A stretch of DNA of 64,000 bases, from positions 197,446,311 to 197,510,310 of the forward strand of contig NC_072791.1 of assembly GCF_028583425.1 (NCBI RefSeq), written 5' to 3'. A program made the position numbers and the translations under genes. The notes under the pieces are model-generated. The model made no database searches. It was not told the origin of the DNA and saw only the letters and a program-made list of their open reading frames with translations. Source of the DNA: Eublepharis macularius. Lineage: Eukaryota > Chordata > Lepidosauria > Squamata > Eublepharidae. Below are positions 3,421-60,745 of the stretch, piece after piece (positions within the stretch are counted from its first letter, which is position 1; every line of letters starts with the position of its first letter).

Positions 3421-3833
3421 TCCTTCTTCTGAAATTCAAAAGTCTCTATGTTTGTCTATGAAGAACAGGGTGTGGGTTATCAAGCTAAACATTTTTTTCC
3501 TTATGCCATTACCCTAGTCCCTCTCAATCTCAATAAAGCAATCATCTAACAAACAGGATTTGTTCCAGTTTTACCTTGTAACTTGTAAGCATTAAAATTA
3601 TTCCATGGCCTGGCATCTAGCTTTAGTACTCAAAATATAGGGTTCCGGGGGTTCTAGGCCACCTAACAACCATGATAGGCCCTCTGAGGTATATTTTAGA
3701 AGGCCCCAAGGGCATGATTTGCCCCCTACTTCTATTCAAGCCCCACCCACGCACCCCAACCTGGCTTTCTCTACCCTGCCTCCCTTTAACTATATGCTTG
3801 GCTGAGGACAACAATCTTACTTTCTTTATCCGA

Positions 3834-3951
3834 GGGCGAAGCTACAAGTGACGAATGACACTTGAACGGCAAGTGTATTTCTCCCTGTTCACTTGCACTC
3901 CACTCAATCCACTTGCTGTTCAAGTGTCATTCGTCACTTGTAGCTTGGTCC
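3834..3951. mobile_element. 118-bp hairpin MITE, copy 1
   Basis: Near-perfect palindrome: arms of about 42 bp starting GGGCGAAGCTACAAGTGACG and ending with its complement, with a spacer of about 34 bp. It differs from the copy at 41278-41395 by only three substitutions. No open frame. The target duplication is not clear. Confidence 0.8.
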
Positions 3952-4091: not shown

Positions 4092-4209
4092 GGGCCAAGC
4101 TACACATGACGGATGACACTTGAACGGCAAGTGGATTGAGTGGAGGGCAAGTGAACAGGGAGAAATACACTTGCTGTTCAAGTGTCATTCGTCCTGTGTA
4201 GCTTGGCCC
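4092..4209. mobile_element. 118-bp hairpin MITE, copy 2
   Basis: Same length and family as 3834-3951, only 140 bp further on, with the central spacer in the opposite orientation. Arms begin GGGCCAAGCTACACATGACG. The two neighbouring copies could pair with each other as well as fold alone. Confidence 0.8.
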
Positions 4210-4479
4210 TGAGAGGCTTCTACAGCCAAGTGGAAAGGGTCTTGCTAACTGCTTTGATATTTCCCTTATATGTGAGGAAAGGTTCCAAAAGAAGCCTGGC
4301 CCTCAGGGGACCAGCATTTTTTTTAACTCTAGCAAAGAAAGAAACAAGAGACGCAGTCCCACTCAAGTGGACACCATTAACCACACAGGACTGGAGTCCA
4401 TCTGCTTTAGCTAGTGGTGGGAAGGGAAAAGTACAGTGTGTGTCCTAGAAGCCTAGTTGGTTTCTTTGCTTTGTGTAGA

Positions 4480-4904: not shown

Positions 4905-5095
4905 TAAAGCTGCCTAATAGCAAGTTAGACCATTGATCTATCAAGGTCAGTATTGTCTATTTTTACAGGCTACAGCTCTCCCGGGTCTCAGGTGCAGATC
5001 TTTCACACCACCGCAGCTGTTCAACAGGAGATGCCAAGGGCTGAACTTGGGACCTTCTGCGTGCAAAGCAGATACTGTACCACAGCCACATCCAA
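4905..5095 (-). mobile_element. tRNA-derived SINE (minus strand)
   Basis: Contains the family tail 'GATCTATCAAGGTCAGTATT' and, on the minus strand, 'GAAGGTCCCAAGTTCAGCCC' in the B-box position. Same family as 2500-2710. Confidence 0.65.
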
Positions 5096-16159: not shown

Positions 16160-16363
16160 ATAGACCACTGTAGTAGTTGGAGTAGTGGTGGTGCAGGAAG
16201 TTCTTTCAAGTCAGACCTCACTTAACCCTGGCAGAGTTTTCTTGGCAAGAGACTAACAGAGGTGGTGTGCTATTGCCGGATCTGCAACCCTAGTTGTCCT
16301 TGGAGGTCTCCCATCCAATTACTAACCAAGGCCAACGCTGCTTAGCTTCTGAGATCTGATGAG

Positions 16364-16764: not shown

Positions 16765-16796
16765 TTGATGAGATCAGACTCACCTGGGCTATCCAG

Positions 16797-16829
16797 GGTC
16801 GAAGCCACACTCACCCTTCGCCCGCATGT
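16797..16829 (+). repeat. Left terminal inverted repeat of the Harbinger
   Basis: GGTCGAAGCCACA then TCACCCTTC; a CGCATGT at 16823-16829 has its mirror at 28819-28825, so the imperfect repeat spans about 33 bp with a few mismatches and gaps. Confidence 0.75.
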
Positions 16830-16965
16830 GTATCGGATATCTTCCGTTTTGCTCCAATCCGCGATTTTTACGTCTTCATTCACATTCCTTCTTCCAATCC
16901 GTCTTTCTCGCGCGGCCCTCCGGTCACACAACCGCTCAAAAACCGTTTTTTGGGGCGGGACTTTT

Positions 16966-16974
16966 TTTCCCGCC
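16966..16974 (+). promoter_or_regulatory. E2F-type motif upstream of the transposase
   Basis: TTTCCCGCC, identical to two motifs (one on each strand) in the shared promoter of the two Myb-like genes. It is about 550 bp upstream of the transposase start. Match by eye only. Confidence 0.35.
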
Positions 16975-17424
16975 CCTTTTTAAAAAAAATTTTTGGAGCG
17001 CACTTTTCCGTTAATTCGATATTGCCTCACAGAGAAACATCATTGAATATAATGATGCCTCTCTTCCCCCCACTGACTGCACTGACGGCTCTCTCCCGTT
17101 TCTTGTTTGCCAACTCGGAAGCCTGTGGGAAACTTTCGTGGAAGTTCACTATGAGGGACAGTTCAGCGCTTGAATTTTACCGCTGTTTCATGACCCTCGA
17201 GTGTAATTCTGTCACCCATGGTCACAGGATGAATCCACATCCACCCTACACCAGCATATTCCGATTTTGTGGGAGGAAAAAAACTCCTCTGCCGCCATTC
17301 TCTTTTTTAAATTTCGTTTCCGTTATTTCGATCTTGCCATATAAGGAAACTTCAATTAAGCAATTTATCACAACAGCTTTAAAGTTATTGGTTGACATTT
17401 TCTGGCGGGGGGATTTGAAAATGA

Positions 17425-17432
17425 TATAAAAA
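17425..17432 (+). promoter_or_regulatory. TATA box of the transposase gene
   Basis: TATAAAAA, 93 bp before the transposase ATG, leaves room for a 5' leader of about 60 nt. An inverted CCAAT (ATTGG) lies about 40 bp upstream. Confidence 0.55.
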
Positions 17433-17517
17433 GGCAAGCATTTGGTGGAGATTTCTTTGTGGGTGTTTGTTGGTGGATGGTGGGTTTGGGAGGTGTTGGT
17501 TGCTTCTGGTTACAGTG

Positions 17518-20318
17518 ATGGATCCAGTGATTGCTGTGGTTGCTCAGGTCATCTGGGTCATGATGGCATGCCAGACACAGATGCTGCTGGCATACCGAAG
17601 GTACGCCATGCGACGGCGTCGTGCCGCAGCACGGATGTTTTTCAAAAATTCTTGTGCCACTGTTGCCTGGGCACGTTCAAGAAGACGTCGTCGGTGCCAG
17701 CGCTTTTGCCAGTGGCTCGTGCTCGCCGAGATGGAAGAGCCAAGGCAGCACTGGGTATTCCCACGTAGCTCAGATTGGTGGGAGAACATTGTAATGGTGC
17801 ATTGGGACGACCGGCAATGGATGCGGCGCTTCAGGATGTCGAAGAGCACATTCATAGAGCTGGTGGAGGCTCTGAGACCACGGCTTCACCGGCAGACCAC
17901 ATCCCTTCGTGTGCCAATATCGGTCGAACGAAAAGTCGCAGTTTCTGTGTGGTGGCTGGCAAGCGGCACTAGTTACCAGGTTGCAAGCGACCTCTTTGGC
18001 ATCGGAAAGTCGACGGTAGCCTCGGCGGTGGTGGAGTTCTGTCTCGCCGTCGAGTTAGAGCTTCTCTCCAAGACTGTCGTCTTCGGTGCCGCGATAGGAC
18101 AGGTACTTGTAACCTTGAAATATCATTTTTTCGATATGACATTAAACCTATCAAACAACGCTTGCATTTTCCCTTCGAACACATGAGTGCAAATTTTAGT
18201 TGGCATTTCTACATTTTTGTCCATGGACCCATATGTACCTTGCAGAATGGCATGTCTTCACAAAATGATTTTTGGTGCAAACTCAATGTTCATTGTATAA
18301 TCTACACTCAGATGAGAGAATCCAACATATTGAGCTGTTTATTGTTTCATTAAAAGTAACCACAGGAAAAGAAACTGTGCTAGTGTGATCGTGTGCCCAC
18401 TTGCTCGGTTGTATATCTCTGCTGCTTTGGCCAAGCATTAATTTTTCCCCCCTTTTTAATTTAAGAGGGTGTGCATTCTCACCTTGAAATAACCTTCCCC
18501 AAACCAAGAGATCTCTGTCCCTGCACAACCAATGAAGTTCTTCTCTTTGTGCCGAGAGAACAACATCAATTGGGTTATCTTTGTAGTTTTTTTAATAAAA
18601 TTCCCAAGTTAGCGGCTCATGAGTTGTGTTGTGGATGAACAGTTTTGAGTCATGGGGGAGGGTGCTGCATACAGATTCTGCTGTAAACACTAGCCAGATA
18701 AGCGTGCATCTCCACAAAACAGTGTTGACTGTTCCCCTGCATGAAAGTTGGGCCATGGAGAGATTTTCCTAAAAAATATTTCCTTTGAACCATGTTGCGA
18801 GTCAGAAAGCACTCTGTTGCAGCAAAGACCAGACTCCTTTCTTGGGTGACAGTGACATAGGCTGTCAAGTGGTGGGGTCAGACTCAACATACTAATGGTT
18901 TGCTGAAATCTCTTGCTGCCAAAAGACGTGCTGTCCTGGCAAGAAGTTGTCTCTTGTTGAGAAGCAGGAACTTAATTTGCATGGCCCGAGGAAAGTTGAT
19001 TACACCTCAATTACGTGGCTCTCAAACTTTACAACGTCCCATTACAGCAATCAACAGTTTGGTTTCAACAAAACAAGTCTTAGACGCAATGTCCTCTCAA
19101 TGCCTTTTTACTTGGCCCATTTTTGAGAATCAACACAAGTTCCTTGATGTGTGGAATAAGAAGGCCACTATTCATACCTACTTTTCCAATCTACAACTGT
19201 CTTAAACATAAACTTTGAGAGAAGCCACAAAACTAATATATTGAGATGTTTACACACGGGCGCGTCTCAAGATCCTGACTCCTCAGCAAAAAATCAACTT
19301 ACCCTGCTTTGCTGCTGTTCAAAGATTGATAAGCTTCCCAAACTGCATATAAATGTCGGCCTGGACATGTCTCTTCGTTGTGTGTGCGTGAACCTACATG
19401 GCTTTTTCAAACCTGGGCCTCAATAACACACCAAGCAAACAATCTTCTAACATTTCTTTTTTTAATGTGAATTTTAACTTCAAAAGATCTCTAAAATGAT
19501 TGAGAACATTTGAAAATTGATGAATTTTTATGTATGAGATTTCCCCACTGCTACAATTTGCTGCTGATCTAATTTTTTCTTTTAATATATGTTCCATTTA
19601 TTGCTATTAGATTATGGATGGATTCCGGAAACTTGGATTTCCACACTGCGTGGGAGCAATCGATGGGACACATATCCCTATCTGTGCACCAGGTGGACGC
19701 CCAGATCAATATGGGAACAGAAAGAACTTTTCATCCATTCTTCTCCAAGGAACCGTGGATCACCTAGGCAGATTCGTGGATGCCGAGGTGGGCTGGAGTG
19801 GGAAAAACCACGATGCTTTTGTGTTTGCCCACTCAGCCTTCTGCGCAGCCATGGACGCTGGAACACTGCTACAGGGCCATGGATACCTGGTGGTGGATGG
19901 GGTGAGAATACCGCCTGTGGTCATCGCAGATGGAGCTTACCCAATGAGGCGGTGGCTGATGAAACCGTATGGGCGGGCAGCAACAACCGCTGCACACCAA
20001 AACTTTGATAGACGTCTGGCCAGGGCAAGAAACCGGGTGGAATGTGCTTTCGGTAGGCTGAAGGCAAGATGGAGGTGTCTTGCACATCGTTTGCAAGTGA
20101 GGGAGCATAATGTTGTGGCCATAGTGACTGCCTGTGTTGTTCTACACAACCTGTGTGAGAGCAAGGGACATCCAATTATTGGCGGGGGCAGACCTCCGGC
20201 ACCTATTCTGGTTTCAAGTTTCGAGGAAACAGAGGACACCTCCAACAATAGGCACCTCGCTGAGGGGAAGAAGGTGCGCGACGCCCTTGCGAAATTCATT
20301 GAGAACTTTGGGTGCTGA
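17518..20318 (+). CDS. Harbinger DDE transposase (HARBI1-like), two exons, 430 aa
   Basis: Exons 17518-18102 and 19611-20318, with a GT..AG intron of 1,508 bp that keeps phase 0. The product is the DDE nuclease of the Harbinger superfamily, which cuts at terminal repeats and acts in the nucleus. The N-terminus is basic (RRYAMRRRRAAARM near residues 27-40). A helix-turn-helix part near 131-173 includes SYQVASDLFGIGKSTVASAV. Catalytic residues fit D213 (GAIDGTHIP), D302 (VIADGAYP) and E339 (RNRVECAFGRLKARWR). The frame has no stop. I chose ATG 17518 because it follows the TATA box closely; the same frame extends upstream without a nearby ATG. Polyadenylation signals lie about 70 bp past the stop. 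Harbinger transposases normally need a Myb-like partner for nuclear import and end binding; two candidates are in the same element. Confidence 0.9.
18103..19610 (+). other. Intron of the Harbinger transposase
   Basis: Begins GTACTTG and ends TTGCTATTAG. It has no open frame of note and no recognisable nested repeat. The break falls between the helix-turn-helix part and the first catalytic aspartate. Confidence 0.75.
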
Positions 20319-20383
20319 AATTCATATTGGCTGTCTCTGCTTGGCAAAAAAGGACAAAAGAACCATTACATTTTCCATTTTAA

Positions 20384-20401
20384 AATAAAAACCACAATAA
20401 A
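20384..20401 (+). terminator. Polyadenylation signals of the transposase gene
   Basis: AATAAA at 20384-20389 and again at 20396-20401, 66-78 bp after the stop codon. Confidence 0.6.
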
Positions 20402-21897
20402 TCGTTTAAATTTCCAATGCTTAAATTACTGTTTTTGATTTCTTTCGAAATTAAATGCTTTTTAAAAAAATCGTGACACTCGAAAACTTGATAAGATGTT
20501 TGGAAATGTCATCCATGACAGTAACAGCACTTCGCATCTGTTGTTGGTTTATGGCCATGAGGAGCATTCCTAACTGATCACTCAATCCCTTGAAAGGGTT
20601 GTGTGTTCCACCCACTCCTCATGGGCGCTTCGTGAGGAGCACATTAAAAAAAGATTCACGCATCGTTATCATCCAGGGAAAATTGAAAAGATACATTGTA
20701 GCACATCTTCACATCAGTGTAAACATCACATTGTACAATGCATCGCCCCACGATGTCACTTGGGACTTCTGATTTCTCTTTTGTTAAAAAGAAAATGTTC
20801 CCCAAAATATACTCTTAGAGATGACGGGGAGTTAGCCGTGTAAGTGTGTGGTGGAATAATCAAAAAGAGCACATTGGCACCACCTTCATTGATGATCTAA
20901 GAATAAACCTCTGGATAATAGCGTGAGCTTTCAGGAGTCAACCTCAAGCAACAATGAAAATTGTTGTTTGAAAAGGTTGTAATGGACTGTTTTTAAAAAA
21001 ACTTTGGCAAATAGAAGAGAGAACATAATCAAACCATTGCATGCTATAGAACACAGTTTTAGAAAAATATTTTTCCTTTTCCCAAGGTCTGTGAGAAGAC
21101 AAGTGGTACATTGAAAAAAAAAAAGAATGTGTGTGCTGGCATAAAACAGATCAGAACACATCACAGGCAGCAATCCGGACGTCAATAGAAGGAACTTTTT
21201 TTTCCCCATTCCAGTATTGGATAAATCACAATATATCAAATTGAAGTAATTAAAATAAGTTGATAACAACCAACTCTTCCACAAAACTCACTGCAAGGTT
21301 TATTGAATTGTTTGTCTTATGGGTGGAGGGAAAAGACGGCTCAAAACAAGTATTGAGCAACCAAGCGAACGTTGATGACATTGGGATCAACATATTAGGC
21401 TGTTTACATAACTTGACCAGCATATTCTTGACATCGAAATAATCAGGTATACAATTTACACTGCTTTGGCGGTGTCTAAGGTATTGTTCCCCGTCAAAGA
21501 AGATGGCACACAACGGCAAGCTCACACACAGCTACAGTGAAGTTGAGTGTGATAAAGAGTGAAAAAAAAATTGAACCGTGTGTGACCAGATTATTAAAAA
21601 TGGGTGGTTTTGTGATTGAAATTTCAAATCCAATGGTTTGTCAAGTTGCCATCCAACATATCACGTCTCGCCATAGTGGGGGTCGCTTAATTGTAGTTGG
21701 AGGGCGTGCTTGTGTCGTCCTAAACCTCCATAAATCATAAAAATCTATAGTGGACCACATGGTTGTCTACAGGAAAAATCACCCGGTGACTGAAAATGAA
21801 AGGTTTTTTTCCCAAGGCCCACGTGGGTGGCGAATTGATGACATACATTGGATTTTTAATTTGATCACAAACCAACCTTTGTTTGGATACCTCATGT
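20402..21897. other. Harbinger spacer between convergent genes
   Basis: AT-rich non-coding DNA between the 3' end of the transposase gene and the 3' end of the minus-strand Myb-like gene. The 117-codon minus frame at 20931-21284 has no domain and probably arises by chance. Confidence 0.55.
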
Positions 21898-21903
21898 TTT
21901 ATT
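21898..21903 (-). terminator. Polyadenylation signal of the minus-strand Myb-like gene
   Basis: AATAAA on the minus strand, 78 bp after the stop codon of the gene ending at 21981. Confidence 0.55.
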
Positions 21904-21980
21904 GATGAGAGAACAGTGGTGAGCATGGTTAGATTCGTCAACCTACGGAACAGTCATGATTACTTGTCTTCACTCAGTGC

Positions 21981-24226
21981 TCACAGCGTCAATCGATCTC
22001 TGGCCTTGCCAACACAGGAACGTTTACTATTGCCCATCTTGGTTGGAAGATTATGTGGGGATTGTGAACACTGTTCAGATGTCATCCCAGACACGCTTTG
22101 TTGCCGCTGACTCGAGAGCATTTCTCCCAGAGCCTTCAAGGTACTAACCGCATCACTCATTACAGCAATATTTTGCTTCCAAACCTCTGTGAAATTTTCC
22201 CTCTCTATCTTGGTTTCCTCCAAAAATTCCTTTTGAAGGAGCTTTTCATCCTCCTTCCATCTGCACATAACCTCATAATCCCTACCCCATTGCGCAAGTT
22301 GAGCCTCGTGCTCCTCCCTTGCACGGAGCATCATTTTATCCGCCACACCATACAGTGCCGCGTTCCTGCGTTTTCTATTCCTTATGTTGCTTAATCTTGT
22401 CCCCGGTGATAGTTCGGCCAAGCAGCTTCCTCTTCCCCCTGTAAGTGTAGAAAGACACAGGAGTCAAGCATTGCAATGGATTATCACCTTTTCCTCAATG
22501 CATGATTTGGCTTGCTGTTATCGGAAGAAGACCGTACACGCCCCCCCGGGGGACTCAACACAGGACACAGAAGAGTGGAGACACATCATTTTTCACACGA
22601 TTTTGAGGATGGATACAAACCATCACCAACAGATCATGGTGGACCACTTTGCAAAGACGGACAGAAAAGCATCATTTTTTCATCAATTACACATGTGTAC
22701 CCTTGATTGTCAAATTGCCCCGCTGCCCACAGCCAAGGCAAATGCAGCGAACAGCACCGGTCGCATCATTAAAAACAGGACCAAACCATTCATGGAAGTG
22801 CATGCCACACTAATTTTGTTCATGTTTTCACAGTAGTTGCCCGAGCAAAGGAAAAATAATGAAAATCTCATGTTTGCGTTAGGGGATGATTGGCATTGCC
22901 CCCCCACTTCCCAGCATCAGTTCACCACTTGCTTCGATGTGTGGGGTTGCGTTAAAGGCGAGCAAACAGGGTGTGTGCCGGGTCCAAACGCATATCTGTT
23001 TCGTCAACGAGATTAAATAACAGTTTTTGGTTAACATCCAAAGTTAGGCTTTGGCTCAACAGCATGGATTTTACCAATAGATTTCACAGAAAAAACTGTT
23101 TTCCTTTGGGACCAATACTTTTGAATTTCTAAAGATTGAACTGAAAATTATAGTCACTTAATATAAAATTTTCACCGGGATTGCGTGTGGATCTATGTGC
23201 CAAGGGCAGATCACTGTCGCTGTCATCCTCTTCCCTCGTATTTGCGTGCGTTGCATCGTTCTCTACAAAGGAAAAATCACCCATTATTGGAGAAAAAGTT
23301 TTAAATTTTTTCCTAGAAGGACATAATTTTTTAAATTGTGGCCCGTAGGCCGTGTTTGGCCTCGCATGAATGGGATGTCTCGGCATGGTCATGGTCTCTT
23401 CCTCTTTGCTGGTTGTGTGTGGGGTTTAGCAAACATTTTCCACTGATTCCAAATTTACTTTTCCTTAAGCTCTGTTCTGAACATACCGACTAAGGGCAGC
23501 AGTGCTCAGTGGTTGCAGACCACATGAAAGTAGAGAACAGGCATTACCCTTGTCTTCGAGACCATCCACTGTGCGGTCTAGGTCTTCGTCATTCACATCC
23601 GTGGACGATGAAGAGTTATGATCTGGAGAAAAGTCAAAAAACTTTTTTTTGGTCTATTAGCACATAGAATGAACAGCAAATGCATGCAAAGCATTAAAAT
23701 TTTATAGTGTTGATTCAGCAGAACATGAAGAACACTCACGCTCTCCCATTGCTGTGGGTGATGAGCTCCTTAGATGTGCCGCGTCGATGGTGACAAACTC
23801 GTGAGAAAAAAGTTCCTCTGAACCCTCCATCACCTGATCAGGAATAGTGATCTGTGGCCGGCCAAAGTCAAGACTAATGCTCCTGGCTATCCTTTTTGGC
23901 TTGACACTTGCGTCCCCCCTAAGGATGCTGTCAAGTTCTCTGAAATAGGGACATGTCATGGGTGCGTTTCCTGATGTGCCATTATGAGCAATGACACGTT
24001 TATACTCCAAACGCATGTTTTTCGTTTTATTTCTGCACTCAATAGCGGTTCTATGGTGACCGCGGGATGCCATCTGTCTTGAAATTTTCTCAAAGTTATC
24101 CAAATTCCTATGGCAACTGCGAAGGGCCTCTTGGATTTTTTCCTCACCCCAAAATGATAGTAAGTCAAGTACTTCCCTTTCCCTCCATGTGGCCGATCTC
24201 GGAACAACTGCAGCGTTGCTGGCCAT
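21981..24226 (-). CDS. Myb/SANT-like DNA-binding protein with coiled coil, four exons, 437 aa
   Basis: Exons on the minus strand: 24226-23740, 23622-23487, 23408-23176, 22438-21981. Every donor starts GT, every acceptor ends AG, and the split codons close in frame. Residues 13-103 are a trihelix-like Myb/SANT domain (TWREREVLDLLSFWGEE, then CRNKTKNMRLEYKRV and CPYFRELDSIL). Basic patches (KKLCPSRKKFK near 234; RNRKRR near 305) could be nuclear signals, and EEDDSDSD at 267-274 is acidic. Residues about 320-395 are a long charged helix likely to form a coiled coil. In Harbingers such a protein binds the element and carries the transposase to the nucleus; that role is inferred here. ATG 24226 was preferred over one 11 codons upstream because MASN leads directly into the domain. 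Confidence 0.78.
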
Positions 24227-24894
24227 TCTTGCGTGGTCCGTTTGCTCCCGGTGCTTCAAGCAAAGCCAGGCTCACAATCACACCGCTTGCATGTTCTCTT
24301 CTGCAGGAAGCGGCAACCTCAGCTAGGAGCATGCGCAGTTAGCGTCAACCGATCACCACCTCTTACATTGCATGTATTTTAATTTTTTTTTCGATAACAA
24401 ATTATCGTTACGCCGTTATTTTGATGAAACATTATTAAAAAAAGGCCGGGAATCAATTGGAATATAATCTAACAAACCCTTCCAATGTACCCTGAGAGAG
24501 ATCGAGAGGTACAAGTGTGTCATAAAAAAAAATTAATCAAGTTGTTACACGTTGTGATCTTTGATATTGGTGATTTAACTTTATTTTTTCGTTTTCCCAA
24601 CCCGTTATCACAATGAAAAAATTTCCATACAGTTAGACGGGTTTTGTCACATTAAGGATTGAATGGGCAGGAAACAATATAAATTTTAAAAAAATACTAT
24701 TTATTTTTAGGCGGGAAAAAAGGGCTACAGCACAGTTCGCCTTTCCCGCCCATAGATAACGCTGGAACACCATTGGACAGGCTACTGTGCTTTGACCAAT
24801 CAGGAGTCTCGATTTTCGCGCCTTTCCAGGACCGTTATTGGGCCATGTTTCTTAATGCAATGACTTATTTTCGCAATTTCGTCTTGGAATCAGC
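24227..24894. promoter_or_regulatory. Shared divergent promoter of the two Myb-like genes
   Basis: The 668 bp between the two start codons holds E2F-type motifs GGCGGGAAA (24710-24718), TTTCCCGCC (24742-24750) and TTTCGCGCC (24814-24822). CCAAT boxes lie at 24772-24776 (inverted), 24796-24800 and 24837-24841 (inverted). No TATA box is obvious near the plus gene. In vertebrates E2F plus NF-Y sites are typical of S-phase and G2/M promoters, so cell-cycle control is a reasonable inference. The cluster is nearer the plus-strand gene. Confidence 0.6.
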
Positions 24895-27088
24895 ATGGCA
24901 AGCCATGGGAAAGGAGTCTTCTGGCGGGATGAAGAGGTTGAGACCCTCCTCGAACTGATCGCACGCTCGGGAAAGTCCGAGCGTGTTATGAAGAGCACTC
25001 ATTTGCCCACCAAAGTGATTTTTCACAAACTGGCAAGGCAAATGAGTGCTCGTGGATACCCTCGGACCCCCGAGCAGTGCCGATCCAAATTTAAGAGGGT
25101 CAAGGGGGATTTCTATGGGGCGCTTGAGGCATGGCAAGGAATTCCTCGCCAAAGCGGCAAGCCCCCATACTTTTCAAACATGATGAACCTCTGGGATCTT
25201 GCCGGGAGGCCGAGCTGGCAAACCAGACGTCATGCCGGTAGGTGAAAATTCTTTTTTTACAGTCAGAATGCTAAGTGGCTTATGTTTTATGGACCTCGTT
25301 GCTGTTTGAGGATATAACCTTAGGCTTGTGCCCCAGTATAATGTTTGCCCACGCCATTATCGAATTTCAGTTTTTTCAAATAAACGCTGTAACGTTGACG
25401 AATCGAGCTAGTGGTTCATTGTCAGGACATCTATAATTTTGCACGGTGCCGTTGGTTTGCTTTAGAAGCATTGACGTACTCAGAGAACTCCATTTCTATG
25501 GAAAAGTTATTTTTCACAGAGAAGCTGCACCCGGACTGTGTCTCCCGAAATCCAGATTCCTTAATTTAGTCACCATTAACCTTTACCCTGATGTTCTCCC
25601 AATTGAGGACTCAAAGCATGTCACCAGAGAAGCTTCCCCCCCCCCCCAGTTTACATTCAGAAAAATTATTGTGAGGTGGGAATGATCCTTGATTTGTGAA
25701 TGACCTGGGGCAGCAACTGAGCTTTGGATGCACAGTTGGCATTTGAATCTGGACCATCCAGATCCTGAAGTGACAAATTAAGTTCTTAAATATTACCATT
25801 TGAGAATTTCACCCAAAAGCACTTATTTTTCGACGACCCACCACTGCAGGTTGAAATGTGGAGCATCATTGAATAGCTCCTGTAGAGGTGGACTGCTCCT
25901 GAACAGGCAGCTTCTATTATTGTGTCAAAGTGAAAAAGCAAACAACACGACTATCTTCAGTGGATTTTTTGAGAGGGTAGTCGAATGACTTGTAGGTAGA
26001 GTTGATCTTCTTTTAAGGACAAGTGATATTATGTAACAGTGTCTAGAAAAAAAATCAATACAGGCCCGTTATTCCTTCTGATTATTTTGTCCCCCCCCCC
26101 ATATCTATTTCTTTAAGAGACATTGTTCAAAACATTTTTTTGTGTCCGATGGTGCATGGATGGCTCAATGCATTGATTTTTTCGCATCTCAGCTGTTCTC
26201 CGTGGAAGAGAGGCCACCCAACGTGCAGCGGAGGGTGAACAGCAGGAGGCCCTGGACATCACCCCAGGAAACATCTCCACCGAGGATCCCCTCCCTCCAA
26301 CTGCAGACACACCATCTGGTGAGCATTTAGAGGCAAGGTCTCCACAGGGGATGCCCCCAGAAACCAAGGACAGCATAGTGTCTGTTGTGAGCTCCTGTCA
26401 CTTTCATCTTTAATTCATATTATCATCTCTCCACTATTAAACTTTTATTTTCCTGTACCAAGTCTAGTCAAAGACATTTAGGATGTGGTCTCCATCATTT
26501 CTGTGACATATCTTTCTTTTTTGAAATTTATTGTTTAATGAATCTCAAACGTTTACCTTGCCTGTTGCTGCTCTGTCATTGACCGGCAACATAATGGACA
26601 TGCACAGAACCGGCCAAATGATGGCCAGAAAATTGAATATTTATAAAGAAAAGTGTTGCATGTAGTTCTCATCAGAGAATCACTGTGACAACACGAGAGA
26701 GGTCCCTCCGTTCTCGTTCATCCATGTCTGAGTCTTGGTCTGGTCTCCTAACGCAGGTGAACAGACAGGGCAAGAAGCTGATGAGGAGGGTCTTCCCTCC
26801 ACAAGTGGCACACCAGCACCCCCAGCAAGACAGAGGAGAAAAACCCTTGATGACGTTCTCTCAGCTGTGGAGGGGCTTGAACAAAGACTGGGCTCCTCCA
26901 GTAAGTAAAAGTCTGAAAGCGAACCAACTTTGTCAATAGAACAGAATTTAAAAAGTTTCCTCTTCTCCACAGTAAACCAATTGCAGGAGAGAATGACCGC
27001 GGTGGAGGGCCGTGTCAGAAGGTTGGGTAGAAGGGTGACCGCTGTCGAAAGGAGAGAACGCCAAGACGCCCGTCCCACAGCGTCATGA
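24895..27088 (+). CDS. Second Myb/SANT-like protein with coiled coil, four exons, 242 aa
   Basis: Exons 24895-25237, 26193-26318, 26757-26900 and 26973-27088. All introns are GT..AG and all junctions are phase 1, giving one open frame to TGA at 27086. Residues 8-105 form a Myb/SANT-like domain (FWRDEEVETLLELIARSG, QCRSKFKRVKGDFYGALEAW, PYFSNMMNLWDLAGR). The middle (115-180) is rich in Glu, Pro, Thr and Ser and looks disordered. Residues about 187-234 (LDDVLSAVEGLEQRL, then repeated VEGRVRRLGRRVTAVERRE) show heptad spacing typical of a coiled coil. Its domain is clearly different from that of the minus-strand gene, so this is not a recent duplicate. A role as a second transposition co-factor, perhaps pairing through the coiled coils, is inference. 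Confidence 0.78.
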
Positions 27089-27279
27089 TTGAGCTATTTC
27101 TGGGACTCCTCACTGTATATAGTTTAAGATATGGTTTTCCCAACAAAGTTATCATAAAAACAGTAATTAAAATGTAGTTATGTTGCATCAAAGATTAAAT
27201 TGAAATACTTCGCTGTTCACCTTCCAAAATATATTGTGTTACTTTTTAAAAATAGCACTGTTTATTTACATTTCTTTAA

Positions 27280-27285
27280 AATAAA
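27280..27285 (+). terminator. Polyadenylation signal of the plus-strand Myb-like gene
   Basis: AATAAA 192 bp after the stop codon, followed by TG-rich sequence. Confidence 0.55.
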
Positions 27286-28818
27286 GTCAATGGGTATTTT
27301 GTGACATCCGTGAGTAGGCTGTCAAGGAAGATTTCGAAAGCAATTTTTTTTTCACAAAGAATACGCATGCATCTTCACCTAACAGATTGCTTATTTAATT
27401 CAAACCCCAAGAAAATATTGCGAAGACTGATCGAGAGTGTCCCCACTTAGCAACAATATGGAAGGAAGGACAAGCCTTTTGATGACTTGTTTCTCTCCGG
27501 GAACACATTTCTAAGCCTTTTTTTTTTTTTCCTTGCTGCGGCCCCCACCACTGACCAAGAACTTATTGCTTGTGCAAAAATAAACCCAAGCAGCAGTCCT
27601 TAGCGTAATAGAGGGTTTTTTTTTTGATTGGGAGGATTCTGAAGATTAACCACTGGGGTTTGGTTTGGCTTTGGTCTATATACAGTATTCTATAAAATTC
27701 AATTATTTCATCCACAGCATTATACCGCCAATGGTTCAGTATGTTTTTAAAAGGGGGTGTACCAGGAGTGAGAAATCGGTTTCCAAAGCCACCACAGTCA
27801 ACTCCCTCCCGCCGTATACCAAGAAAAAAATTTCATCACAGACAGTGAAAGAATCTCTAGTTTTAATTTTTTTTTTAACCTGAATGTTTGGAATAACGAT
27901 ATCAAGATATATTGCTTGCGGAGGCGTGTCTCTCCGACGCGATTACGGAGATAGATCAGTGGTGCCATAGCAAACCACGATATTTTCAGAGTTTGGGATT
28001 TCATGAGGCTAGGCTTCATTCTTCATCCCTACCTGTGTCGAAACCAGAAATCTCTGTCACACAAAGATAGAGAATAAATGTTCAGTAAAAGTTATTGCCA
28101 TATAACGGGTGCTCGATTCTCACAGTTCAGCCTAGGGAATTTTTTTTTTTTCACATGAAGGTTTGTCATAACGAAAAATTGATGTCTCGATAAAAAAATC
28201 TTTTCTTCCCGATGCATTGTAGGAGAACCAACTGTGTGGCTGCATGTATCTAGCCCCCCATTTTCTAGTGTGAGGTTGCGGAACATTTTCCCAGACATTT
28301 CTCAAGGGAGTGTACAATGTCATTGGAGACCGGTTACAAATGGGGGGAAACGTGGAAGAGTGGTGGAGGTTCTGCACTGTGTTTTCTTTATTTCGGAAGT
28401 ATGATTCACCATAATTTCGATATTTCAGTGATATTAAACAAAAAAAAAATTTTAAACGGAACTTGAGCGAGTCCCTTCTGATGATGGATTCTCCCCAAAA
28501 TCATTCTTCAAAGTAACAAGTTCGATTCATAACCTGCTTATTCAATAAGTACAATGCTATGAAGTGAAAAAAGTCTTTTGCAGACTGCGGAGCAATTGCC
28601 GGCTGAATCAGCCAATAGGAACTCACGGAACGTCCAGAGAGATAGGAAGGGGTTGGTTTTTAAAACAACCGCGTAAATTGCGCATTGGGCCGTTCACGGC
28701 CACCGTGAAACTCCCATTAAAAACCCGTGACCACATATTCGGGAGAAAACCGGATGCAATGCGTCTGTTGGATGAGGTGATGTGACCGGCGCTAGAGATT
28801 GCGTGGGGAATGCGGGAA
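27286..28818. other. Harbinger right subterminal region, non-coding
   Basis: AT-rich DNA with long T and A runs. The last 250 bp turn CpG-rich and include a CCAAT (CAGCCAATAGG near 28610). The 73-codon frame at 28564-28785 has no family resemblance. The CpG-rich ends mirror the left end and may hold protein-binding sites. Confidence 0.5.
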
Positions 28819-28853
28819 ACATGCGACTTAGAACGGGTAATGTGGATTTGACC
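28819..28853 (-). repeat. Right terminal inverted repeat of the Harbinger
   Basis: Read on the minus strand from 28853: GGTCAAATCCACATTACCCG, then TTCTAAGTCGCATGT. It aligns to the left end with substitutions at positions 5 and 9 and small gaps. CAG follows at 28854-28856. Confidence 0.75.
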
Positions 28854-28870
28854 CAGGTCAGGGCAGCAGC

Positions 28871-31094: not shown

Positions 31095-31270
31095 CCCCTG
31101 GTGGGGTTTTAATGGCAAGAGATTAACAGAGGTCGTTTGCCATTGCCTGCCTCTGCCACCCTGGTCTTCATTGGAGGTCTCCCATCCAATTACTAACCAA
31201 GGTTGACCCTGCTTAGCTTCTGAGATCTGACAAGATCAGGCATGCCTGGGCTATCCAGGTTAGGGCCCTA
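31095..31270 (-). mobile_element. 5S-rRNA-derived SINE
   Basis: 'CCCCTGGTGGGGTTTTAATG', 'GGTCTCCCATCCAATTACTA', 'CCTGCTTAGCTTCTGAGATC', 'GGCATGCCTGGGCTATCCAG'. Good match to the copy at 60535-60745. Confidence 0.75.
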
Positions 31271-33040: not shown

Positions 33041-44321
<11,281 letters not shown>

Positions 44322-60534: not shown

Positions 60535-60745
60535 AGAGTGCCCTCAAGTCATAGCTGATTTATGGAAACCCCTGGTGGGATTTTCATGGCAAGAGACTAA
60601 CGGAGGTGGTTTGTCATCGCCTGTCTCTGCAACCACTGGTCTTCGTTAGAGCTCTCCCATCCCCTTTCTAACCAAGGCCGACCCTGCTTAGCTTCTGAGA
60701 TCTGACAAGATCAGGCTCTCCTGAGCTACCCAGGTCAGGGCATGA
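60535..60745 (-). mobile_element. 5S-rRNA-derived SINE, uninterrupted
   Basis: 'CCCTCAAGTCATAGCTGATT', 'GGCAAGAGACTAACGGAGGT', then the antisense 5S block CCGACCCTGCTTAGCTT and 'CTGAGATCTGACAAGATCAG', ending 'CCCAGGTCAGGGCATGACAC'. This copy serves as the unbroken reference for the SINE at 16160. Confidence 0.8.

What the first reader, a model, noticed from the sequence alone, without database searches (positions are those of the whole stretch)
16797..28853. A 12-kb Harbinger with two different Myb/SANT partner genes
Seen: one element between matched ends carries a DDE transposase and two distinct multi-exon Myb/SANT plus coiled-coil genes on opposite strands. Known: Harbingers generally carry one transposase and one Myb-like protein that helps nuclear import and end binding. 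Inference: a three-gene transposition system in which two DNA-binding co-factors may have separate jobs, for example one per terminus, or import versus target choice.
Basis: partly seen in the sequence, partly recalled or inferred. Interest (0 to 1): 0.85.

Follow-up and report, generated by a model that had tools for sequence, protein, structure and literature searches.

The report
Three-gene Harbinger transposon with two Mybs
This is a recently active 12-kb jumping gene that carries a transposase and two different Myb-type DNA-binding helper genes, a three-part set that recurs in many copies and several related families of the same genome, whereas the described relatives carry only one helper.

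Summary
The element is 16797-28853: sister copies share these ends and differ beyond them, and the window copy is flanked by a CAG target duplication. It encodes a 430-aa DDE transposase and two Myb/SANT proteins, Myb1 (368 aa) and Myb2 (242 aa), as spliced gene models without RNA support.

The second Myb is not a captured host gene. Of transposase loci at 91% identity or more, 11 of 11 have both Mybs; at 75-83%, 77 of 85, in the same order. Ten of 54 more-diverged loci list both in another order, and two of the rest, when read, also hold both. Both Mybs are under purifying selection.

Target duplications are 3 bp but not fixed: of 32 matched ones (41 insertions read), 12 are CWG and 1 is TWA. 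The bases outside follow a palindrome, AC-NNN-GT, like the core of the published Harbinger3_DR target. Both ends carry the same CACA-type motif, so "one Myb per terminus" is not favoured. What each Myb does is inference. I rate it a new variant of a known kind; ten paper searches showed no two-Myb Harbinger.

The parts
16794..16796 (.). left copy of 3-bp target duplication, CAG
16797..28853 (.). complete transposon, 12,057 bp
   Evidence: ends shared by sister copies, flanks not
16797..16816 (+). left terminal inverted repeat, imperfect: GGTCGAAGCCACACTCACCC
16880..16884 (+). subterminal TCACA motif at +84 from the left end
   Evidence: same position in families F1 and F5, +86 in F13
16924..16928 (+). 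subterminal TCACA motif at +128 from the left end (within CCGGTCACAC)
   Evidence: +128 in F1, F5 and F13
17518..18102 (+). transposase exon 1
19611..20318 (+). transposase exon 2, DDE catalytic domain (D213, D302, E339 of the 430-aa protein; triad assigned by eye)
   Evidence: PF13359 E 3.5e-32
21981..22438 (-). Myb1 exon 4, charged helical-looking tail with RNRKRR cluster
   Evidence: homologue in L144, 45%
23176..23262 (-). Myb1 exon 3
23548..23622 (-). Myb1 exon 2
23740..24226 (-). Myb1 exon 1, Myb/SANT trihelix domain
   Evidence: PF13837 in 6 of 6 aligned members; GT-1 trihelix profile match
24227..24894 (.). 668-bp head-to-head region between Myb1 and Myb2, possible shared promoter
   Evidence: gene models; sequence read; promoter role is inference
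24895..25237 (+). Myb2 exon 1, Myb/SANT trihelix domain
   Evidence: PF13837 in 8 of 8 aligned members; GT-1 match
26193..26318 (+). Myb2 exon 2
26757..26900 (+). Myb2 exon 3
26973..27088 (+). Myb2 exon 4, coiled-coil-like tail
28781..28785 (-). subterminal TCACA motif at +69 from the right end (within CCGGTCACAT)
   Evidence: +69, +69, +68 in F1, F5, F13
28834..28853 (-). right terminal inverted repeat, imperfect: GGTCAAATCCACATTACCCG
28854..28856 (.). right copy of 3-bp target duplication, CAG

Best explanation
A young, probably still mobile PIF/Harbinger-type (PHIS) transposon that belongs to a clade whose transposition kit has three genes. Shown: one DDE transposase and two long-diverged Myb/SANT trihelix proteins travel together in many families of this genome, both Mybs under purifying selection; insertion duplicates 3 bp, with a palindromic preference AC-NNN-GT around them; 867-878-bp relatives keep only the two ends. 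Inferred mechanism: the transposase cuts at the GG/CC ends and makes 3-bp staggered cuts in the target; Myb1, the partner more like that of a one-Myb Harbinger in this genome, imports the transposase (it has an RNRKRR cluster) and binds the ends; Myb2 is a second DNA-binding subunit of the same complex, joined through its helical tail, that helps assemble the unequally spaced sites of the two ends or the target. CACA-type sites at +9 in both ends, +84/86 and +128 in the left end and +68/69 in the right end are the likely binding sites of one of these proteins.
For: Three-gene set: 11 of 11 Tnp loci at 91% or more and 77 of 85 at 75-83%, all in order Tnp> <Myb1 Myb2>; 10 of 54 at 66-71% list both, all in order Tnp> Myb2> <Myb1. 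Two loci of that last class listed with one or no Myb were read and hold both. Selection, NG86 on one exon each against the diverged copy at C2:73.37 Mb: dN/dS 0.138 Tnp, 0.195 Myb1, 0.082 Myb2. TSDs match in 32 of 41 insertions against 1.6% by chance; C-NNN-G 17 of 32 against 4.9%; AC-NNN-GT 7 of 32 against 0.28%. TCACA 9 in six subterminal ends, shuffle mean 1.43, reached in 0 of 300. The 867-878-bp relatives consist of both ends (3 read). An 18-mer modelled on the ends of related families has 765+781 exact matches in the genome, against 0 for the reversed control; it does not match the window's own ends.
Against: No expression, import, binding or transposition data. NLS-like basic clusters occur in Myb1 and also in the transposase itself (RRRRR near residue 55), so the transposase may not need Myb1 for import. 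The five 171-180-bp fold-back MITEs read keep the +9 CCACA but no subterminal TCACA, so the subterminal sites are not always needed, or another family moves those MITEs. Nine of 41 insertions lack matching TSDs. A canonical-type Harbinger in the same genome shows one Myb in the 8.5 kb read, though its ends were not reached. Eight of 85 loci at 75-83% and 44 of 54 at 66-71% did not list both Mybs (lists capped at 150).
Confidence: 0.6

Rival explanations
1. Myb2 is integral to the element but not to the cut-and-paste reaction: it acts as a regulator, for example activating the element's promoters or opposing host silencing.
For: In the window's group Myb1 and Myb2 are head to head over a 668-bp spacer. 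Myb2 is about equally distant from Myb1 and from the one-Myb partner, while Myb1 is closer to that partner (alignment scores 168-179 against 57-90 and 76-77), so Myb1 could be the sole transposition partner.
Against: In the more diverged families the Mybs are tail to tail, so a shared promoter is not a conserved feature. Myb2's domain has the lowest dN/dS of the three exons in the one unsaturated comparison, as expected of a complex subunit, though a regulator could be constrained too.
Confidence: 0.25
2. One Myb serves each terminus: Myb1 binds one end and Myb2 the other.
For: The ends differ in layout: TCACA at +84/86 and +128 on the left, +68/69 on the right.
Against: Both ends carry the same kind of terminal repeat and the same subterminal motif in the same orientation in three families; a second over-represented word, ATCCG, is found in 5 of the 6 ends, left and right.
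Confidence: 0.08
3. The second Myb is a captured host gene, or the block is two nested or fused elements.
For: None found, beyond the unusual length of 12 kb.
Against: Both Mybs recur in the same arrangement at 88 of 96 transposase loci of 75% or more and in distant families. Inside the element the terminal motif has only three 3-mismatch hits (17227, 19464, 23061), no more than chance gives. Where the ends of copies were read, they are the window's ends.
Confidence: 0.02

Closest known systems
NuwaI group of the PHIS (PIF/Harbinger-ISL2EU-Spy) superfamily (PMC4482050: passages and the NuwaI section read)
   Same: DDE transposase, Myb/SANT protein, short inverted repeats beginning GG, 3-bp TSD with CWG the commonest class here
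   Different: NuwaI is described with two ORFs in most autonomous candidates, CWG TSDs, TIRs usually beginning GGG, autonomous consensus about 4.5 kb, and in bony fish and invertebrates. Here: three genes, 12 of 32 TSDs CWG, TIR GGT or GGC, 12 kb.
Harbinger3_DR of zebrafish (PMC3016246 and PMC9710019, passages read; the original 2008 paper is not held)
   Same: Palindromic target AAACACCWGGTCTTT has the AC-CWG-GT core, like the AC-NNN-GT preference here; its Myb-like partner binds a 9-bp subterminal motif, comparable in place to the TCACA sites
   Different: One Myb-like gene; strict target. Whether the 9-bp motif resembles TCACA was not checked.
Teleost Harbingers (PMC9179366, passages read)
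   Same: Transposase plus Myb-like protein, the Myb domain far less conserved than the transposase
   Different: Described with one Myb-like gene per element and a single origin of the pairing; here two Myb lineages are kept side by side.
Harbinger-Snek of sea kraits (PMC8437027, one passage read)
   Same: Recent Harbinger expansion in a reptile, with short non-autonomous forms
   Different: Two proteins, and variants encoding only one.

Membership tests
PHIS (PIF/Harbinger) superfamily | IS5-like DDE transposase (DDE_Tnp_4) | tested here: met
   PF13359 E 3.5e-32, 111.6 bits against cut-off 24.8
PHIS (PIF/Harbinger) superfamily | separate Myb/SANT-domain protein in the same element | tested here: met
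   two of them; PF13837 above cut-off in both
PHIS (PIF/Harbinger) superfamily | terminal inverted repeats and 3-bp TSD | tested here: met
   ends shared by sister copies; 32 of 41 insertions with a matching 3-bp TSD; the TIR is imperfect (14 of 20)
PHIS (PIF/Harbinger) superfamily | helix-turn-helix in the transposase N-terminal part | tested here: inconclusive
   HTH_Tnp_4 13.7 bits, below its cut-off of 27
PIF/Harbinger group in the strict sense | TWA target duplication | tested here: not met
   1 of 32 matched TSDs is TWA (TTA)
NuwaI group | CWG target duplication | tested here: not met
   12 of 32 CWG: enriched (9 of the first 28, p 1.3e-6) but not fixed
NuwaI group | two ORFs: transposase plus one Myb/SANT | tested here: not met
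   three genes
NuwaI group | TIR of 12-61 bp, usually beginning GGG | tested here: inconclusive
   TIR of about 20 bp is in range, but begins GGT or GGC
NuwaI group | transposase falls in the Nuwa clade | not tested
   no reference transposases of that clade were at hand
Host-domesticated transposase/Myb genes (HARBI1/NAIF1 type) | single conserved locus without TIRs or TSDs | tested here: not met
   multi-copy with TIRs and TSDs

The most novel reading that the evidence does not exclude
A long-lived clade of Harbinger transposons runs on an obligate three-protein machine in which two anciently diverged Myb subunits have separate essential jobs (for example import and end binding by one, and unequal-end assembly or recognition of the AC-NNN-GT target by the other), with target choice moved from the duplicated bases to the flanking palindrome.
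Probability: 0.45. Interest if true: 0.82.

Novelty: new variant of a known kind. Interest (0 to 1): 0.68.

Why it matters
Harbingers are already unusual among DNA transposons in needing a second protein, and why they need it is only partly understood. A clade that keeps two such partners, with many intact-looking copies, lets the question be tested directly by leaving out one protein at a time. A Myb partner of a Harbinger is held to have become a vertebrate gene (NAIF1, PMC9710019, passage), so a second Myb lineage carried by the transposon is a further possible source of host DNA-binding proteins.

Tried and rejected
TIR evidence from the window alone was at chance level, so I did not rely on it. 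I first read the window's CAG TSD as showing NuwaI membership; the sister copies' varied TSDs withdrew that. The first exon-1 donor tried for Myb1 (23834) gave no open model and was replaced by 23740, chosen for reading frame plus a GTGAGT donor. A simple splice-score scan had found neither that site, nor the Myb1 exon-2 donor, nor the transposase donor, so these three rest on frame and GT. A control for gene number, a canonical-type Harbinger at C14:51.28-51.29 Mb, shows one Myb in 8.5 kb but its ends were not reached, so it is weak. Scans of viral contigs and genome contigs with the transposase found no relative. Scripts that failed or misread and were redone: as 42; its pattern missed most left ends; as 82; as 109; no transposase model because of a start coordinate off by two; as 64 and 65. 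Single-exon PDB searches: Myb2 best hit GT-1 at E 0.08, transposase nothing relevant. Absence of a Myb in many 66-71% loci was not used, because the Myb tables stop at 150 rows.

No Harbinger with two Myb partner genes was seen in those listings or in the passages read; subscription papers and Repbase reports are not held, so this is not proof that none is in print.
Full report
WHAT WAS CHECKED. The window lies in a 2.24-Gb genome held as G000, at C2:197446311-197510310. The finding's coordinates are right. I took letters around the expected ends of the ten other transposase loci at 91% or more. Homology to the window copy ends at 16792-16797 on the left in nine and at 28853-28865 on the right in nine; the first terminal base is the same in all of them, and the short overruns are target-duplication or chance matches. 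The C1:230.76 Mb copy has its left end about 5.5 kb further out, as if it held an insertion; that end was judged from 121 bp. The right end of the C2:73.36 Mb copy was not obtained. From the window alone the inverted repeat (14 of 20 places) would not have been convincing.

GENES. The transposase has two exons (17518-18102, 19611-20318; 430 aa) with a DDE_Tnp_4 domain. Myb1 is on the minus strand in four exons (24226-23740, 23622-23548, 23262-23176, 22438-21981; 368 aa). Myb2 is on the plus strand in four exons (24895-25237, 26193-26318, 26757-26900, 26973-27088; 242 aa). Both Mybs match Myb_DNA-bind_4 above its cut-off, the family is found in 6 of 6 and 8 of 8 aligned relatives, and both profiles find the plant GT-1 trihelix domain in the PDB (E 1e-4 to 5e-4). 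Their domains are only 27-34% alike, while Myb1 scores closer than Myb2 to the Myb of a canonical-type Harbinger in the same genome (168-179 against 76-77; one such Myb compared). So they are not a recent duplicate pair. The simplest reading is that Myb1 is the standard partner and Myb2 the extra one.

THE SET RECURS. Three protein searches of the genome scored 150 places each (capped). Pairing them by position: of 11 transposase loci at 91% or more, 11 have both Mybs; of 85 at 75-83%, 77 have both, 2 list Myb1 only, 3 Myb2 only and 3 neither; all 88 with both have the window's order, Tnp> <Myb1 Myb2>. Of 54 at 66-71%, 10 list both, all in a second order, Tnp> Myb2> <Myb1; 13 list Myb1 only, 9 Myb2 only and 22 neither. 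The Myb tables end at about 63-65% identity, so absence in this last class means little. I read two loci of that class. The one at C1:213.36 Mb, listed with Myb1 only, has a Myb2 at 62% with homologous C-terminal exons. The one at C7:81.37 Mb, listed with neither, has Myb1 at 63% and Myb2 at 59%, each with a homologous C-terminal part. Both show the second order. A search with the C-terminal Myb2 exons alone gave 141 matches, 119 of them outside the 11 loci of 91% or more. The same three genes in two orders argue for an old set that was rearranged, not for one accident.

SELECTION. Against the window copy, the diverged copy at C2:73.37 Mb gives dN/dS 0.138 for transposase exon 2, 0.195 for Myb1 exon 1 (111 codons) and 0.082 for Myb2 exon 1. 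Between families dS is near or beyond saturation, and where dN/dS can be computed it is 0.04-0.08. All three proteins look constrained.

MOVEMENT. Copies are young: three of the 11 transposase exon-2 proteins, including the window's, are identical, and their DNA differs from it by 0-2 synonymous sites. A 200-bp left-end search scored 40 places: ten of the 11 transposase loci of the family and 30 others at 87-90%. A right-end search listed ten family loci, 30 others at 90-91% and one fragment. Both scored only 40 of about 1570 candidates. Three of the left-end others, read in full, are 867-878-bp elements made of about 394 bp of the left and 442 bp of the right end. Related families end in a similar repeat. 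An 18-mer modelled on their ends (GGNYGAATCCACAYTACC) occurs 765+781 times exactly, against 0 for the reversed control; it does not match the window's own ends, which differ at a few bases. Of the first 100 places listed, 56 form 28 pairs 135-180 bp long. Five of these, read in full, are fold-back MITEs of 171 or 180 bp. Which family mobilises them was not tested.

TARGET SITES. Forty-one insertions were read at both ends: the window, 9 sister copies, 3 of the 867-878-bp elements, 21 copies of family F5, 2 of family F13 and 5 small MITEs. One F5 copy (L121) and the C2:73.36 Mb copy were dropped because a right end was not read. Thirty-two have matching 3-bp duplications (chance 1.6% per pair). 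CTG 7 and CAG 5 are the commonest, but 15 other triplets occur; TWA occurs once. Of the nine mismatches, five differ by one base, two are an inverted pair 20 kb apart on C7 whose flanks look exchanged, and two are unexplained. Outside the duplication, position -2 is A in 23, -1 is C in 24, +3 is G in 24 and +4 is T in 22 of 32; the full AC-NNN-GT is present in 7 of 32 against 0.28% in the window. Harbinger3_DR's published target AAACACCWGGTCTTT (PMC3016246, passage) has an AC-CWG-GT core. So the target is of the Harbinger3_DR/NuwaI type, with specificity mostly in the flanks and a loosened centre.

ENDS. Excluding the terminal 20 bp, TCACA occurs 9 times in six ends of three families, against a shuffle mean of 1.43 (0 of 300 shuffles reach it). 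Its places are +84 and +128 (F1, F5) or +86 and +128 (F13) on the left, and +69, +69, +68 on the right; the terminal repeat has CCACA at +9. F1 and F5 are related sequences, so the six ends are not independent; F13 is far more diverged. ATCCG is also over-represented (8 against 1.9, in 5 of 6 ends) but scattered, and low-complexity words such as TTTCC also occur in all six. The motifs were picked by looking, so their p-values are descriptive. Same motif at both ends, different layout: this speaks against one Myb per end and for one protein bound at both ends in different numbers. The five small MITEs have no subterminal TCACA, which weakens any claim that these sites are essential.

WHAT IT IS. 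It meets the superfamily tests (DDE_Tnp_4 transposase, Myb/SANT partner, TIRs, 3-bp TSD) but not the strict PIF/Harbinger TSD (TWA), nor NuwaI's CWG TSD and two-ORF plan (PMC4482050). I file it as a new variant of the PHIS superfamily, close to NuwaI/Harbinger3_DR in target choice, with three genes. Shown: composition, recurrence, selection, target and end layout. Inferred: that both Mybs act in transposition and what each does.

HOST. No call names the species. Hits fall on contigs C1 to C19 of a 2.24-Gb assembly, which would suit a gecko; that is recall and inference only.

Corrected: the number of Myb2-tail matches outside the family (119), the statement on the 18-mer (related families' ends, not the window's own), the number of internal weak terminal-motif hits (three), the between-family dN/dS range, the extent of homology at the ends, and the account of repeated calls.

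Noticed in passing
G000 C7:125.753-125.778 Mb (L099, L100, L125, L126): Two inverted copies of family F5 about 20 kb apart have exchanged flanks (ATT/AGA and AGA/ATT), as expected if recombination between them inverted the 1.1 kb between.
   Followed up: partly
window 16783-16796 and 28854-28863; L088 (C4:57.85 Mb): The window element and one 875-bp relative sit at the same position of what looks like the same host repeat (ctgggctatc-CAG-gtcaggg), so this repeat may offer a recurrent target.
   Followed up: partly
L145-L149, C1: 171-180-bp near-perfect fold-back MITEs carry the terminal repeat of the related families; 56 of the first 100 exact 18-mer matches are in such 135-180-bp pairs.
   Followed up: partly
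window 31148-31266 (-), with relatives at 60568-60741 and 16226-16359: 5S-rRNA-like sequence (Rfam RF00001, 44 bits) repeated in the window, perhaps a 5S-derived SINE.
   Followed up: no
window 5030-5092 (-): tRNA-like match (Rfam RF00005, 34 bits), possibly a SINE head.
   Followed up: no
window 16952-16976 and 24711-24751: GGCGGGA...TCCCGCC-type inverted motifs lie upstream of the transposase and between the two Mybs; they resemble E2F sites (recalled), which could tie expression to the cell cycle.
   Followed up: no
window 3832-3951 and 41276-41395: 120-bp repeats 97.5% identical, with an inverted copy at 4092-4213.
   Followed up: no
window 20819-20881: A 50-60-bp repeat inside the element matches the window at 1517-1570 and the host flank of another copy (L081), suggesting a small insertion in the transposon.
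   Followed up: no
G000 C14:51284700-51293200: Canonical-type Harbinger with a 453-aa single-frame transposase, one Myb nearby and an internal tandem array; over 8.5 kb, ends not found.
   Followed up: partly
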